Assembly: GCF_002571225.1 (NCBI RefSeq)
Contig: NZ_NVEC01000016.1
Coordinates: 21,622 to 71,553, forward strand
Source of the DNA: Bacillus sp. AFS059628
GTDB taxonomy: Bacteria; Bacillota; Bacilli; Bacillales; Bacillaceae_G
Length of the DNA stretch: 49,932 bases
Direction of reading: 5' to 3'
Shown here piece by piece: positions 4,010-47,215 of this stretch. The notes beneath the pieces are model-generated. The model was not told the DNA's origin. It ran no database searches and saw only the letters and a list, made by a program, of their open reading frames with translations. Made by a program: the position numbers and the translations under genes. Every line of letters starts with the position of its first letter. Position 1 is the stretch's first letter.

Positions 4010-4483
4010 ATGTTAAAGAAAAAAGTTCAAATTGGTCGTAAAATGGATGAAATTACAGTAGGAGAGAAATTATCTATCACTGAAAAAATTGAGGATAAAG
4101 ATTTGTTATTGTACTTAGGTTTAACGAATGATGCCAATCCATTATATATTCAGCATGATTACGCATCCCAAACTCCGTATGAAAAGCCGATTGTACCAAG
4201 CATTATGCTAACTGGAATGATTACAACGGCAGTTACGAAATATTTACCAGGTCCAGGTAGTCATATTACGAGAAAGGACCTTACGTTCGTGAAGCATGTT
4301 CACCATTATGAAACGTTACAAATCCACTTTGAAGTTGTGGCTGTTTCTGAGGAGGAGCATACAATTGATATGCTTGTATCTGCTCATGATGAAAAAGGAG
4401 AAACGGTTGTAAAAGGTTCATTAACAGTAACGCCGCCTTTCAAATCAGTTTCTATTATGGAAAAAGCATTAGATAATTTTTAA
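4010..4483 (+). CDS. MaoC/R-hydratase hot-dog fold protein, catalytic His replaced
   Basis: A 157-residue single hot-dog domain of the MaoC/PhaJ enoyl-CoA hydratase type. The segment around residues 36-62 aligns by eye with PhaJ: Asp41, Asn43 and Pro44 of the D-x-N-P-x-H hydratase motif are kept. The motif His (position +5 from Asp) is Tyr46, and the usual HGM after 'IV' is PSIM. The (R)-specific hydratase reaction is therefore doubtful; acyl-thioester binding or a changed chemistry is possible. GGAGGGGG precedes the ATG. It stands alone between two terminators behind a cre-like box, so expression should fall on preferred sugars. Confidence 0.8.
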   Translation: MLKKKVQIGRKMDEITVGEKLSITEKIEDKDLLLYLGLTNDANPLYIQHDYASQTPYEKPIVPSIMLTGMITTAVTKYLPGPGSHITRKDLTFVKHVHHYETLQIHFEVVAVSEEEHTIDMLVSAHDEKGETVVKGSLTVTPPFKSVSIMEKALDNF

Positions 4484-4497
4484 AAAATGAAAATATG

Positions 4498-4541
4498 AAT
4501 AGCGCTAGCATACCTTACTATAAGGGGCTAGCGCTATTTTT
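4498..4541 (+). terminator. Terminator of the MaoC gene (bidirectional)
   Basis: AATAGCGCTAGC (4498-4509) pairs perfectly with GCTAGCGCTATT (4527-4538), followed by TTTT. The A-rich left flank means it can also end the small reverse gene that stops at 4540. Confidence 0.85.
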
Positions 4542-4671
4542 AGTTGAAGAATCCTTGTGTGAATCCTTCAGCGAAATCTGAACAGCCTGTTTTAATCGTA
4601 TCCCAGCTTGGGGCGTTGAATGTAAGAATACACGTCACTATTAAAGATAGAATAGGTAGAACTAGTCGCAT
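4540..4671 (-). CDS. Small secreted or membrane peptide, unknown
   Basis: A 43-codon frame on the reverse strand. A canonical GGAGGTC ribosome binding site lies 5 bases before the ATG (4671), which is the main reason for calling it. Residues 2-20 are a hydrophobic segment (VLPILSLIVTCILTFNA) after a single Arg, like a signal peptide or membrane anchor. A polar C-terminal part with WDTIK, one Cys and FTQGFFN follows. It ends in the shared terminator at 4498-4541. I do not recognise the family. Confidence 0.6.
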   Translation of the reverse strand: MRLVLPILSLIVTCILTFNAPSWDTIKTGCSDFAEGFTQGFFN

Positions 4672-19087: not shown

Positions 19088-19124
19088 GCATATAATTACC
19101 TACATAAATGAAATATATTGAAAT

Positions 19125-19370
19125 GTCATGATGAGGACATGAGTAGTTTTCTACGATTTTCAGAGAGGGAAGCCTTAGGGTGTGAGCTTCCTAGTACGGG
19201 ATTATTACTTACCACCTCTAAACTTTAGCAGTGAACGATTCTTCTAGTAATTGCTAACGGACAACACCGTTATGTTGAACTTGAGCAATTAACAATAAGG
19301 TTAATTGGAACAAGGGTGGAACCACGAATTCAACACTCGTCCCTTTTTACGGGATGAGTGTTTTTTATTT
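19125..19370 (+). promoter_or_regulatory. T-box riboswitch of thrS (threonine)
   Basis: A T-box leader that reads uncharged tRNA. Stem I begins at GATGAGGACATGAG; its 3' side TTACCACCTC carries the specifier ACC (19211-19213, Thr) followed by A, and CCTC closes on GAGG. The T-box sequence AGGGTGGAACCACG lies at 19313-19326 (it pairs with the tRNA 3' end). The terminator AACACTC...GAGTGTTTTTT lies at 19332-19366. Low charged tRNA-Thr favours the antiterminator and expression of thrS. Confidence 0.95.
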
Positions 19371-19394
19371 TGAGAAAAAGAGGAGTGACCAGTG

Positions 19395-21332
19395 ATGGCA
19401 GATGTAGTTAAAATTACTTTCCCTGATGGAGCTGTGAAGGAGTTTCCAAAAGGCGTAACAACTGAAGAAATCGCAGCTTCTATTAGCCCAGGCTTAAAGA
19501 AAAAAGCTGTGGCTGGAAAATTAAACGATGAGATGATCGATCTTGTTACACCAATCGAAGAAGATGGTGCAGTTTCTATCATTACATTAGATTCTGAGGA
19601 TGGCTTATATATTTTACGCCACTCAACAGCTCACCTTTTAGCACAAGCATTAAAACGTTTATATAAAGATGTTAAGGTTGAGCTTGGCATTGGTCCGGTA
19701 ATTGAAAATGGCTTCTACTACGATATTGATATGGAAGAAGCAATTACAGTTGAAGACTTCAAGAAAATCGAAAAAGAAATGCAAAAAATTGTGAACGAGA
19801 ACTTAGAAATCGTTCGTCATGAAGTACCACGTGCAGAAGCAATTCGTCGTTTTGAAGAAATCGGCGATGAGTTAAAATTAGATTTAATTAACGATCTTCC
19901 AGAAGATGCTATTATTTCAATCTATGAGCAAGGCGAATTCTTCGACCTTTGCCGTGGCGTTCACCTTCCATCTACAGGGAAAATTAAAGTATTTAAATTA
20001 TTAAGCGTTGCAGGTGCTTACTGGCGCGGCGATAGCAATAATAAAATGCTACAACGTATTTACGGTACTGCATTCGTTAAGAAAGCAGAATTAGATGAGC
20101 ACTTACGTATGCTTGAAGAAGCGAAAGAGCGCGATCACCGTAAATTAGGTAAAGAATTAAAACTATTTACTAATAGCCAAAAAGTAGGACAAGGTTTACC
20201 ACTTTGGTTACCAAAGGGTGCAACAATCCGCCGCATTATCGAGCGTTACATCGTTGATAAAGAAGCGAGCTTAGGCTATGATCACGTATACACTCCAGTA
20301 CTAGGAAGCAGAGAGCTTTATGAAACTTCTGGACACTGGAACCACTACCGTGATGGTATGTTCCCATCAATGGAAATGGATAATGAAGAGTTAGTTCTTC
20401 GTCCAATGAACTGCCCTCACCACATGATGGTTTATAAAAACGATATTCACAGCTATCGTGAATTACCAATCCGTATTGCGGAACTTGGAACAATGCATCG
20501 TTATGAAATGTCAGGTGCGTTATCTGGCTTACAACGTGTACGCGGAATGACTTTAAACGATGCACACATTTTCGTTCGCCCAGATCAAATTAAAGAAGAG
20601 TTAAAACGTGTTGTAAACTTAACTCTAGAAGTGTACAAAGATTTCGGTTTAGAGAACTATTCATTCCGTCTATCTTATCGTGACCCAGCAGATACTAAAA
20701 AGTATTATGCTGATGATGAGATGTGGGAAAAAGCACAAGGTATGTTAAAAGAAGCTATGGATGAAATGGGTCTTGATTACTATGAAGCTGAAGGTGAAGC
20801 GGCATTCTACGGTCCAAAACTTGACGTTCAAGTTCGTACTGCTCTTGGAAAAGACGAAACACTTTCAACTGTACAATTAGACTTCTTACTTCCAGAACGC
20901 TTTGAATTATCTTACGTTGGTGAAGACGGTAAACAACATCGTCCAGTTGTAATTCACCGTGGTGTTGTATCTACAATGGAACGTTTCGTAGCCTTCTTAA
21001 TTGAAGAATACAAAGGTGCATTCCCAACTTGGTTAGCTCCAGTTCAAGTACAAGTAATTCCAGTTTCTCCGCAAGTACATTTAGACTATGCGAAGAAAGT
21101 ACAAGACGAATTACGCCGTGCTGGTATCCGTGTTGAATTAGATACTCGTGAAGAGAAAATTGGTTACAAAATCCGTGAAGCACAAATGCAAAAAATTCCG
21201 TACATGCTTGTAGTAGGTGACAATGAAGTAACTGAAAACGGCGTAAACGTACGTAAATACGGTGAACAAAAATCAGAAACAATCGCATTAGATGCTTTTG
21301 TTGACATGATTAAAGTAGAAGGAAAACGATAA
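19395..21332 (+). CDS. thrS: Threonyl-tRNA synthetase
   Basis: Charges tRNA-Thr. The 645-residue class II enzyme has a TGS domain (1-62, [12 protein letters not shown]), an editing domain with [11 protein letters not shown] (the H-x3-H motif), a catalytic core with [14 protein letters not shown] and the zinc-binding Cys and His. Motif 2 is [20 protein letters not shown], and a C-terminal anticodon-binding domain starts near 545. ATG at 19395 has GAGGAG 8-13 bases upstream; the preceding in-frame GTG is closer to that site. Controlled by the T-box leader directly upstream. Confidence 0.97.
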
Positions 21333-21521: not shown

Positions 21522-21713
21522 GGATAATAGAATATTGTTTTGTGGAACAAGTAGAAGCACCCGCTTCTCACCTGATGGACGCATTCGCAGTTTACAGGTA
21601 AATGTATTTCTTACTTAAGATTTTACAAGTGTGGGTGTCGTATGCCCGCACTTTTTTTGTCGGGTTCTATGACTACAAACTATGTTCTGAGAAAACCTTG
21701 GAGGTGGCTTACT
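21522..21713 (+). promoter_or_regulatory. L20-type leader of infC-rpmI-rplT
   Basis: A long leader that ends in a terminator: GTGTGGG (21629-21635) pairs with CCCGCAC (21645-21651), followed by seven T. In B. subtilis, ribosomal protein L20 binds the equivalent leader and promotes termination. Here the complementary segments CACCTGATGG and ACAGGTAAATG upstream of the terminator may form the alternative, L20-binding fold. Assignment rests on position, terminator and operon content. Confidence 0.75.
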
Positions 21714-31986: not shown

Positions 31987-32039
31987 AAAACTTCTTATAA
32001 TAAGTTGAAGTACATTATATTAAAAGTTAAATAACGAAA

Positions 32040-32283
32040 AACGTTGATAGAGAAGAGTAGCTTACAAAATCGCCATATAGGGAGAGAATGCCGTAGACTG
32101 AAAGCATTCTTATGGTAGACGGAAGTGAATTCACCTCTGGAGTTGACGCCAGGACCATGTACATGTAAAGGCGTTCCGGTCAGAATTGATCGTTATAACT
32201 AATGAGTGGGCAGACATGTTCTGTCAATTTAGGGTGGTACCGCGAATTTACCTCGTCCCTTTTTGGGAGCGAGGTTTTTTTAT
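32040..32283 (+). promoter_or_regulatory. T-box riboswitch of pheST (phenylalanine)
   Basis: The specifier is TTC (32130-32132, Phe) followed by ACCTC in the stem I 3' side. The T-box AGGGTGGTACCGCG lies at 32231-32244. The terminator ACCTCGTCCC/GGGAGCGAGGT with T-run lies at 32250-32282. It senses uncharged tRNA-Phe. Confidence 0.95.
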
Positions 32284-35815: not shown

Positions 35816-35939
35816 ATGGAACGATTGTAAAAATCGTCGATATATTTTTAGGCGTCTTGCATCTTTCTCTCGAATGTAGTACATTAATTTTAGTTTAACA
35901 AAATGAAAGACGATGATAAGGAAAAGTAGTATATACTAT

Positions 35940-36174
35940 AATCCAAAGCGAGTCAGGGACGGTGAGAGCCTGATGAGGAGGTATATGTGAAGAACACCTT
36001 GGAGTTGCTAACCGAAATTGAATCTTGTATTCAAGAGTAGACTTAGACGGGAATCCGGCCTGTTACAAACCGGGAAGTATGTATTACATACGAGTTAAAG
36101 TTGGTCTTTATGACAAATTGGGTGGTACCGCGAAGTTTAACCTTTCGTCCCTTTATGGATGAAAGGTTTTTTTG
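35940..36174 (+). promoter_or_regulatory. T-box riboswitch of asnS (asparagine)
   Basis: The specifier is AAC (35993-35995, Asn) followed by ACC. The T-box TGGGTGGTACCGCG lies at 36119-36132. The terminator AACCTTTC/GAAAGGTT with T-run lies at 36139-36173. It senses uncharged tRNA-Asn. Confidence 0.93.
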
Positions 36175-45447: not shown

Positions 45448-45529
45448 TCAGAAAAAATAAAACTATTGATTTTTTTAAAAATAGCCCATATAATAAAAAA
45501 CAACAAGTTTCGACAAGATATTTTATAAA

Positions 45530-45796
45530 AGTAATGATGAGGACATGAGTTGTTTTTTACGATTCTCAGAGAGGGAAGCCTAGGCTGTGAGCTTCCTAAT
45601 ACGGAAAGACAGACTTACCACCTCTAAACTTCAAGAGTGAACTGCATGATGCATTGTAATTCTTGGCGGATAAAACCGTTATCAATTTACACGAGCTATA
45701 AAATGAGCTTATTTTGTTATAAATTCATTTTATTAGAATAAGGGTGGAACCACGATTTCAACACTCGTCCCTTTGTTAGGGACGGGTGTTTTTTGC
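45530..45796 (+). promoter_or_regulatory. T-box riboswitch with threonine specifier before a BrnQ-family gene
   Basis: It is almost the same as the thrS leader at 19125-19370: both share GATGAGGACATGAGT, CAGAGAGGGAAGCC, TGTGAGCTTCCTA and CTTACCACCTCTAAAC. The specifier position reads ACC (45617-45619, Thr) followed by A, with CCTC closing on GAGG. The T-box AGGGTGGAACCACG lies at 45741-45754. The terminator AACACTCGTCCC/GGGACGGGTGTT with T-run lies at 45760-45794. The downstream gene should be induced when tRNA-Thr is uncharged. Confidence 0.92.
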
Positions 45797-45889
45797 GTTC
45801 TTTTACGGGGAAGTATGCTTGAAAGAGGATATGTGACGGATTTTAATTCAGAATATTTTGTTAATTAATTATTTAGGAGGTTAGTAGAA

Positions 45890-47215
45890 ATGAAATCATC
45901 TTTAAAGTTTTCTGAGATGTTTGCAATAAGTTTAATGTTATTTGCACTATTTTTCGGTGCAGGTAATATGATTTTTCCACCAGCGTTAGGGCAAGGTGCT
46001 GGAACAGATGTATGGATCGCCTTGTTCGGTTTTATCGTAACGGGTGTTGGATTACCTTTATTAGGAGTTATCGTTATCGCTTTAAAGGGAGATATAAATG
46101 AGTTAGCAGGACGTGTACACCCTATATTCGCACTAGTGTTTATTACTGCAATTTATTTATGTTTAGGCGTATTCGTAAGTGTGCCGCGTACAGGAACTGT
46201 TGCTTATGAGATGAGTGTTGCACCGTTTTTACCAAGTGAGATAGCTGATCAATCGTATCCACTTGTTATCTTTACATTCATTTTCTTTGCCGTAACTTTC
46301 TATTTAGCTTTAAATCCATCGAAATTAGTGGGTCGCATTGGCAAAGTATTAACTCCAATTTTATTAGCTGTTATTGCAATTATCGTAGGTAAAGCATTTA
46401 TTACACCAATTGGAGAATTTGGTGCACCGACAGAAGCGTATAGTGCTCCTCTTTTTAAAGGATTTATTGATGGATATTTAACTTTAGATGGACTTGCAGC
46501 GCTAGTATTCGGAAATGTTGTCATTCATGCTTTAAAAGAAAAAGGTATTACAAATAAAAATAGTATTGCAAAAGTAACAATCTTTGCAGGATTTATTGCA
46601 GCACTTGGTTTACTGCTGGTTTACTTAGCTCTTGCTTATCTTGGAGCTTCAAGTGTGTCTCTTGGAATGGGAGCAAACGGAGGAATTATTTTAACAAACG
46701 TTGTAAATCATTTATTCGGTAGTTACGGAACTTTATTATTAGGAATCGCAATTTCAGCAGCATGTTTAACAACTTCTGTAGGTATTGTTGCAGCTTGTGG
46801 GGAATATTTTTCTTCCTTATTACCAAAGCTTTCTTATCAAAAAGTCGTTTTCATTTTCTGTGTATTAGCATTTATGGTAGCGAATCTTGGCTTAACGCAG
46901 TTAAATGCACTAGCATTACCAATTTTAATTGCAATTTACCCAATTGGTATCGTGCTGATTGTATTATCGCTAGTTGAAAACTATATTCGTCTTCCTTTAG
47001 TAATGTATGTAGGTGGTATTGTAGGAGCATTCATGATCAGCTTCTTTGATGGATTGCACAATGCGAATCTTCAAATTGAGGCATTAGCACCTATTTTAAA
47101 TAAAATTCCGTTATATAGTGTAGGGATCGGTTGGTTAGTTCCTGCTCTAGTAGGTATTGTAATTGGATATGTCATTTCTATTTTTCAAAAGCAAGAAGTT
47201 GCTGTAGAAAAATAG
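45890..47215 (+). CDS. BrnQ-family (LIVCS) amino acid transporter, probably for threonine
   Basis: A Na+- or H+-coupled amino-acid symporter of the branched-chain BrnQ/BraB family. The 441-residue protein has 12 hydrophobic segments with LFALFFGAGNMIFPPALG near the N-terminus, VPRTGTVAYEMSV near 105 and ACLTTSVGIVAACGEYF near 290, all typical. By homology alone it would be called a Leu/Ile/Val transporter. The threonine T-box in its leader argues that threonine is a physiological substrate. AGGAGG lies 10 bases before the ATG. It is a single-gene unit. Confidence 0.88.
   Translation: MKSSLKFSEMFAISLMLFALFFGAGNMIFPPALGQGAGTDVWIALFGFIVTGVGLPLLGVIVIALKGDINELAGRVHPIFALVFITAIYLCLGVFVSVPRTGTVAYEMSVAPFLPSEIADQSYPLVIFTFIFFAVTFYLALNPSKLVGRIGKVLTPILLAVIAIIVGKAFITPIGEFGAPTEAYSAPLFKGFIDGYLTLDGLAALVFGNVVIHALKEKGITNKNSIAKVTIFAGFIAALGLLLVYLALAYLGASSVSLGMGANGGIILTNVVNHLFGSYGTLLLGIAISAACLTTSVGIVAACGEYFSSLLPKLSYQKVVFIFCVLAFMVANLGLTQLNALALPILIAIYPIGIVLIVLSLVENYIRLPLVMYVGGIVGAFMISFFDGLHNANLQIEALAPILNKIPLYSVGIGWLVPALVGIVIGYVISIFQKQEVAVEK

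What the first reader, a model, noticed from the sequence alone, without database searches (positions are those of the whole stretch)
45530..47215. A BrnQ-family transporter is controlled by a threonine T-box, nearly a copy of the thrS leader
The leader at 45530-45796 shares several long stretches with the thrS T-box at 19125-19370, including the specifier segment CTTACCACCTCTAAAC and the T-box AGGGTGGAACCACG. Since the thrS leader must read tRNA-Thr, the same ACC specifier before a gene normally annotated as a branched-chain amino-acid carrier predicts that this paralogue imports threonine. The duplicated leader also suggests that a thrS T-box was copied and recruited to a transporter gene. 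Observed: sequence match. Known: T-box leaders read the cognate tRNA. Inferred: substrate.
Basis: partly seen in the sequence, partly recalled or inferred. Interest (0 to 1): 0.75.

Follow-up and report, generated by a model that had tools for sequence, protein, structure and literature searches.

The report
Threonine-sensing switch on BrnQ-type transporter
A gene annotated as a branched-chain amino-acid importer sits behind an RNA switch that reads threonine's tRNA, so it probably imports threonine; the switch was already reported in 2008, and a later paper names the wrong amino acid for it.

Summary
45525-45775 is a T-box leader (RF00230, 104.9 bits) with specifier ACC and acceptor-pairing bulge UGGA, followed by a strong terminator. 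It is homologous to the thrS leader, but 'nearly a copy' overstates it: 77% identity, no closer than to thrS leaders of two other genomes. Three stem pairs changed on both sides and stayed paired. In Priestia taiwanensis, ACC plus UGGA fits tRNA-Thr(GGU) with U73; the tRNA-Ile and tRNA-Val seen, and three of four tRNA-Leu, end in A73. This is not new: Wels et al. 2008 reported a Thr T-box on a LIVCS gene in B. anthracis, highly similar to thrS's. Dutta et al. 2022 call it leucine-specific, against their own source; their BrnQ6 did not restore Ile or Val uptake, and its loss left Leu uptake unchanged. As E. coli BrnQ carries threonine, threonine import is the best reading, untested. Added here: two tandem Thr T-boxes on the P. 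taiwanensis orthologue; this T-box type on 2 of 87 LIVCS proteins examined; clade-specific protein changes of uncertain weight.

The parts
45466..45494 (+). sigma-A-type promoter-like site, TTGATT-17-TATAAT
   Evidence: 10 of 12 matches; at chance level: 3 such sites found in the stretch, 2.3 expected
45525..45775 (+). T-box leader of the brnQ-type gene
   Evidence: Rfam RF00230, 104.9 bits, full-length model match
45617..45619 (+). specifier codon ACC (threonine)
   Evidence: the same pattern gives UUC for pheS and AAC for asnS in this window (for this leader it also lists one further, misplaced triplet)
45741..45754 (+). T-box sequence AGGGTGGAACCACG; UGGA at 45745-45748 would pair with the tRNA 3' end UCCA
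   Evidence: tRNA-Thr(GGU) of P. taiwanensis has U73
45740..45775 (+). antiterminator region, mutually exclusive with the terminator
45760..45790 (+). intrinsic terminator, 13-pair stem then T run
   Evidence: (-22.0 kcal/mol for 45756-45798, z -5.96)
45875..45880 (+). ribosome-binding site AGGAGG
   Evidence: read
45890..47215 (+). LIVCS (BrnQ-type) transporter, 441 aa, proposed threonine importer
   Evidence: AlphaFold2 model, mean pLDDT 89.9
19119..19370 (+). thrS T-box leader and terminator (comparison copy); specifier ACC 19211-19213, UGGA 19317-19320
19392..21332 (+). thrS, threonine--tRNA ligase
   Evidence: ORF; its protein matched in 16 of 16 genomes, best 87% identity, and its P. taiwanensis counterpart scores as TIGR00418 thrS. 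The window protein itself was not run against a family library.

Best explanation
The leader is a transcriptional T-box riboswitch that reads the charging state of tRNA-Thr(GGU). When that tRNA is uncharged, its anticodon pairs with the ACC specifier and its UCCA end with the UGGA bulge, which stabilises the antiterminator; the terminator at 45760-45790 does not form and the LIVCS transporter is made. The transporter most likely imports threonine (perhaps also serine or other neutral amino acids), so the cell restores threonine when threonyl-tRNA runs short. The leader descends from the thrS T-box family and was captured by this gene at or before the common ancestor with the Priestia taiwanensis lineage, or separately in each. 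Shown by sequence: T-box anatomy, specifier, bulge base, homology to thrS leaders. Inferred: response to threonine starvation, substrate, timing.
For: T-box and specifier. Structure kept under change: of 28 consensus pairs checked, 28 form in the brnQ leader and 27 in thrS; three pairs, in the helix before the conserved CGG...CCG hairpin, changed on both sides (pairs, whose alignment contains both leaders). Bulge base: in the P. taiwanensis tRNA genes read, tRNA-Thr(GGU) has U73 while Thr(UGU), Ile(GAU), Val(UAC) and Leu (UAA, UAG, GAG) have A73; among 30 T-boxes read there the bulge is UGGA only for cysS, thrZ, brnQ and thrS. Linkage conserved: the P. taiwanensis orthologue (72%) carries two tandem Thr T-boxes, both ACC and UGGA, although the flanking genes differ. 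Substrate: in B. anthracis brnQ6 in trans did not restore Ile or Val uptake, and single brnQ nulls other than brnQ1, brnQ3 and brnQ4 showed no significant change in Ile, Leu or Val uptake (PMC8787487, passages and section 8); E. coli BrnQ is a direct low-affinity threonine carrier (PMC10070963, passages). The window and P. taiwanensis proteins share changes at sites otherwise at least 90% conserved, among them P94V and I209N.
Against: No threonine uptake measurement of this protein and no induction data were found. Negative branched-chain results can reflect poor function in the assay: brnQ2 also failed to complement. E. coli BrnQ carries threonine only with low affinity and is described as a branched-chain carrier first. 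The count of clade-specific changes is the highest per branch length among the eight clades with stems of 0.25 or more (8 on 0.36, against 11 on 0.72, 6 on 0.51, 5 on 0.28, 3 on 0.30, 3 on 0.25, 1 on 0.47, 1 on 0.32), but not far outside them, and two clades with shorter stems show more (16 on 0.13, 13 on 0.15), one of them nested in the 0.72 clade and one enclosing it. The sites were not measured against a bound ligand. No B. cereus-group genome surfaced in the searches, so the tRNA evidence is from a relative.
Confidence: 0.72

Rival explanations
1. The protein is an ordinary branched-chain (or broad) carrier whose expression has merely been put under threonine control, for example because threonine is the precursor of isoleucine.
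For: Curated models call it a branched-chain carrier. Wels et al. 2008 expected LIVCS carriers to be multi-specific despite amino-acid-specific T-boxes (passage). E. coli BrnQ carries both branched-chain amino acids and threonine.
Against: In B. anthracis brnQ6 did not restore Ile or Val uptake and its loss caused no significant change for any of the three, while brnQ3, brnQ4 and brnQ5 partially restored Ile and Val uptake. Elsewhere, 15 of 17 UGGU T-boxes on LIVCS genes read ATC (Ile), so signal and family substrate usually agree.
Confidence: 0.2
2. The leader is leucine-specific, as stated for brnQ6 by Dutta et al. 2022.
For: The statement in PMC8787487, citing Wels et al. 2008.
Against: The specifier is ACC and the bulge UGGA. 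[quoted passage not shown]
Confidence: 0.01
3. The leader is a decayed relic with no regulatory role.
For: It is less similar to the window's thrS leader (77%) than that leader is to thrS leaders of two other genomes (82%), as a relaxed copy would be.
Against: All 28 pairs checked are kept, three by changes on both sides; terminator and conserved motifs are intact; the same T-box type stands on the orthologue in P. taiwanensis.
Confidence: 0.04
4. Serine or a general small neutral amino acid, not threonine, is the main substrate, and threonine is only the signal.
For: Threonine and serine share carriers in B. subtilis (BcaP, YbxG; PMC8226366, passages).
Against: Nothing in the sequence points to serine.
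Confidence: 0.08

Closest known systems
Thr T-box before a LIVCS gene in B. anthracis (BA4970 in Wels et al. 2008, PMC2494555)
   Same: Same arrangement and the same statement of high similarity to the T-box of the Thr-tRNA ligase of the same genome; acquisition independent of the gene duplication was proposed there.
   Different: In the passages read, Wels et al. did not assign threonine as substrate to the LIVCS protein. The tag BA4970 is probably a transposition of BA4790: in the window the two genes lie about 26 kb apart, which fits 30 locus numbers (BA4790 to BA4820), not 150. That reading is mine.
BrnQ6 of B. anthracis (GBAA_4790; Dutta et al. 2022, PMC8787487)
   Same: 441 aa like the window protein. 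An isdC gene lies next to the window gene, and isdC is BA4789 from memory, so this is very likely the same gene or its close orthologue.
   Different: That paper calls the T-box leucine-specific; the word threonine does not occur in its main text. Identity is inferred from length and neighbours, not from a sequence comparison.
Escherichia coli BrnQ (PMC10070963)
   Same: LIVCS-type carrier shown to take up threonine directly.
   Different: Low affinity for threonine and known mainly as a branched-chain carrier; T-box control is not expected in E. coli (recalled, not tested).
   Same: T-box leader on a LIVCS gene.
   Different: Specifier ATC where readable (15 of 17) and UGGU bulge, in other branches of the protein tree.
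Thr T-box before the SteT (ykbA) orthologue, an APC carrier, in the B. cereus group (Wels et al. 2008)
   Same: Thr T-box on an amino-acid transporter in the same group.
   Different: Different transporter family; not in this window.

Membership tests
T-box riboswitch (RF00230) | covariance-model match over the whole element above gathering score | tested here: met
   104.9 bits, model 1-219, gathering 93
T-box riboswitch (RF00230) | specifier codon in the stem I internal loop | tested here: met
   ACC at 45617-45619
T-box riboswitch (RF00230) | UGGN bulge sequence and competing terminator | tested here: met
   UGGA 45745-45748; terminator 45760-45790
T-box riboswitch (RF00230) | antitermination on uncharged cognate tRNA | not testable with these tools
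   needs a reporter or in vitro transcription
Threonine-specific T-box | specifier matches a tRNA-Thr anticodon | tested here: met
   ACC with tRNA-Thr(GGU); the tRNA gene was seen in P. taiwanensis, not in the window's own genome, which is not held
Threonine-specific T-box | bulge base pairs with the tRNA discriminator | tested here: met
   UGGA with U73 of tRNA-Thr(GGU) of P. taiwanensis
LIVCS transporter family (PF05525 / TIGR00796) | full-length family match above cut-off | tested here: met
   489.5 bits (cut-off 22.3) and 455.8 bits (cut-off 243.4)
LIVCS transporter family (PF05525 / TIGR00796) | branched-chain amino-acid transport | not testable with these tools
   published assays of the probable same gene in B. 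anthracis: no complementation of Ile or Val uptake, no significant effect of its loss
Threonine transporter | threonine uptake | not testable with these tools
   no assay of this protein found in the searches

The most novel reading that the evidence does not exclude
This clade of LIVCS carriers has switched from branched-chain amino acids to threonine: a thrS-type T-box was captured, and the protein changed at near-invariant sites on helices that would line the substrate site of a LeuT-fold carrier (P94V in TM3, within IGPFFGIPRT to LGVFVSVPRT; M199L and I209N in TM6; L299I in TM8). It would be a threonine-dedicated LIVCS carrier, and that would be the missing function of BrnQ6.
Probability: 0.45. 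Interest if true: 0.5.

Novelty: already known. Interest (0 to 1): 0.33.

Why it matters
It gives a testable substrate for a BrnQ paralogue that failed branched-chain uptake tests, corrects a published statement that its T-box is leucine-specific, and is a clear case of a regulatory RNA used to re-annotate a transporter. It also shows a T-box that was captured, and in P. taiwanensis doubled, at a transporter gene.

Tried and rejected
Recent same-genome copy of the thrS leader: not supported by identities and unresolved by tree tests (none of three constrained topologies rejected by AU, p 0.231, 0.155, 0.114; the last, both leaders with their own thrS, falls outside the bp-RELL set).

CodY control: Dutta et al. 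mention a putative CodY site at brnQ6; the 15-base consensus (recalled) with up to 3 mismatches found 5 sites in the window, none near the leader, against 11.3 expected by chance. A crude test.

Synteny as proof of orthology: the window genes tested (polX-like, mutS2, pseudouridine synthase, isdC, thrS) have no match in any of the 29 loci L001-L029, P. taiwanensis included; orthology rests on the protein tree (support 1.0).

Solved homologue for the substrate site: none by sequence or by profile, E up to 1; only fold-level matches, so no ligand contacts were assigned.

Strength of the substitution signature: pairs of proteins as controls looked striking (8 against a maximum of 3 in 308 pairs), but that control is biased, because sister proteins share changes; the clade control is fairer and much less striking.

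Specifier rule as a control: a pattern listed the cognate codon among its candidates, usually several per box, for 15 of 18 aminoacyl-tRNA synthetase boxes of P. taiwanensis; for the other three (second tyrS, second ileS, hisS) it is seen by eye in the print. This is not a strict blind test.

Full report
1. What is there. The stretch 45525-45775 matches the T-box family over its full length (104.9 bits, gathering score 93). Read, the specifier is ACC at 45617-45619 and the bulge is UGGA at 45745-45748. A promoter-like site lies at 45466-45494 (at chance level) and a 13-pair terminator at 45760-45790, with -22.0 kcal/mol for 45756-45798. The gene at 45890-47215 encodes a 441-aa LIVCS protein. 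The same window has the thrS T-box at 19119-19347 and two more, at 32035-32263 (pheS) and 35904-36155 (asnS). The pattern that gives ACC here gives UUC for pheS and AAC for asnS, a control inside the window; for the brnQ leader it also lists one misplaced triplet.

2. How alike the two leaders are. Local alignment scores 210, against a maximum of 28 in 1000 shuffles; of 33 T-boxes compared, only P. taiwanensis thrS (194) and brnQ box 1 (164) are close, the next being 57. Identity is 77.0% over 243 positions. It is 50-51% identical to the pheS and asnS leaders of the window and 57-64% to thrZ-type leaders. So it belongs to the thrS family of leaders, but it is not a fresh copy. Maximum-likelihood trees do not place it firmly: a clade of the window's two leaders (p-AU 0.231), a clade of the brnQ leaders of window and P. 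taiwanensis (0.155) and both leaders with their own thrS (0.114) are all allowed by AU.

3. Is the leader under selection? A consensus fold of 14 Thr leaders has 34 pairs, 10 of them with changes on both sides in some sequence. I checked 28 of these in the two window leaders: 28 form in the brnQ leader and 27 in the thrS leader; three were changed on both sides between the two. The six other predicted pairs, between the specifier side and the bulge, I took for pairing of invariant letters and left out. The structure was predicted from an alignment that contains both leaders, which favours it.

4. Which tRNA. No B. cereus-group genome surfaced: none is held for the window, and the best protein match in the searches was 72%. 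I used Priestia taiwanensis (L001, G001). In the tRNA genes of the 30 loci given (of 89 tRNA matches), tRNA-Thr(GGU) has U73 and no encoded CCA, and tRNA-Thr(UGU), Ile(GAU), Val(UAC) and Leu(UAA, UAG, GAG) have A73 (Leu(CAA) was offset by the program and not read). UGGA therefore fits the GGU isoacceptor, which also reads ACC. In 30 of the 34 T-box matches of that genome, the bulge base is A in 4 (cysS, the thrZ-type box nearest the gene, first brnQ box, thrS), C in 5 and T in 21; the other brnQ and thrZ-type boxes also have A. tRNA-Cys also has U73, which explains cysS. The 18 synthetase genes behind these boxes were identified by their best NCBIfam matches (several are cut by the locus ends, and the second ileS is nearest to the MupB-type model). 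TBDB uses the same two criteria, specifier and discriminator (PMC7778990, passages).

5. Relatives. The P. taiwanensis orthologue (72% identity) has two tandem Thr T-boxes, 4364-4596 and 4645-4881 of L001, sharing a 149-nt repeat at 93% identity, both with ACC and UGGA. The window's neighbouring genes are not beside it. Of 101 LIVCS loci scanned for a T-box core, 89 were taken further (L060-L070 repeat other loci and L104 is a fragment) and 86 gave a distinct protein of at least 350 aa; with the window that makes 87. Two have a UGGA T-box (window, P. taiwanensis), 17 a UGGU T-box, 68 none by the motif used. Of the 17, 15 read ATC (Ile); L023 and L078 could not be read by the pattern, L078 lying behind a run of N. 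The two Thr-type proteins form one clade (support 1.0) whose nearest neighbours, L071 and L077, have no T-box. Rfam itself was run on 22 of these loci. The order-level search covered 397 genomes, 225 with a match at E 1e-110 or better, but gave DNA for only 30 loci, so rarity is a statement about the loci read.

6. The protein. The window and P. taiwanensis proteins share changes at sites otherwise at least 90% conserved: A62V, I92L, P94V, M199L, I209N, L299I, S327A, S342A. P94 is P in 85 of 85 other proteins. IGPFFGIPRT has become LGVFVSVPRT, although F96 and G97 are less conserved. Among the eight clades with stems of 0.25 or more, 8 changes on 0.36 is the highest rate, the others being 11 on 0.72, 6 on 0.51, 5 on 0.28, 3 on 0.30, 3 on 0.25, 1 on 0.47 and 1 on 0.32; two clades with shorter stems, one inside and one around the 0.72 clade, show 16 and 13. 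So this is a hint, not a proof. An AlphaFold2 model (mean pLDDT 89.9, pTM 0.88) breaks helices at 23-25, 96 and 197-199, and Foldseek finds APC/LeuT-fold carriers such as ApcT, LAT1, Mhp1 and LeuT (best E 4.2e-7, TM about 0.6). That TM3, TM6 and TM8 line the substrate site is taken from knowledge of the LeuT fold, not measured; the helix numbers are mine.

7. What is in print. Wels et al. 2008 (PMC2494555; outline, passages and section 19 read) report for B. [quoted passage not shown] Dutta et al. 2022 (PMC8787487; outline, passages and section 8 read) say that a leucine-specific T-box precedes brnQ6, citing Wels; they found no complementation of Ile or Val uptake by brnQ6, no effect of its loss on Leu uptake, and no significant change in single nulls of brnQ genes other than brnQ1, brnQ3 and brnQ4. 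I equate brnQ6 (GBAA_4790, 441 aa) with the window gene from its length, the isdC neighbour (IsdC by NCBIfam; its tag BA4789 is recalled) and the distance to thrS; this is an inference. E. coli BrnQ takes up threonine (PMC10070963, passages with part of the abstract; PMC12003319, passages). BcaP is the main threonine carrier of B. subtilis (PMC8226366, passages). Tandem T-boxes are reported for thrS and other genes (PMC12452182, passages); the terms brnQ, LIVCS and COG1114 are not in its main text. Searches in which I saw no threonine test of this carrier: (listings); the library holds only open-licence papers.

8. Verdict. Thr T-box: settled by sequence. Origin from the thrS leader family: supported, published, date open. 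Threonine import: most likely (about 0.7, some breadth of substrate allowed), untested.

Noticed in passing
L001:4364-4881: Two tandem Thr T-boxes precede the brnQ orthologue of Priestia taiwanensis, 93% identical over a 149-nt repeat.
   Followed up: yes
L031 (with L032, L033), T-box region: Three tandem T-boxes with specifier TAC (Tyr) precede a Na+/H+ antiporter-family (PF03553) gene in P. taiwanensis.
   Followed up: partly
L050:1501-1759: A T-box whose specifier reads AAC (Asn) precedes another PF03553 gene in P. taiwanensis, suggesting asparagine-linked transport.
   Followed up: partly
L030 and L047: Two sodium:neurotransmitter-symporter family genes (PF00209) in P. taiwanensis have T-boxes that read TTC (Phe) and TGG (Trp), as Wels et al. 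describe for the B. cereus group.
   Followed up: partly
window 45890-47215: Dutta et al. place LIVCS proteins in the major facilitator superfamily; the model here matches APC/LeuT-fold structures.
   Followed up: partly
L121, L122, L123: A second, thrZ-type threonyl-tRNA synthetase gene has two tandem T-boxes with UGGA in three of the 16 genomes searched.
   Followed up: no
window 21543-21663: Ribosomal protein L20 leader (RF00558, 88.5 bits) follows thrS.
   Followed up: no
L112, upstream of thrS: The stretch before the thrS T-box core looks like a long repeated sequence and no stem I was seen there (by eye).
   Followed up: no
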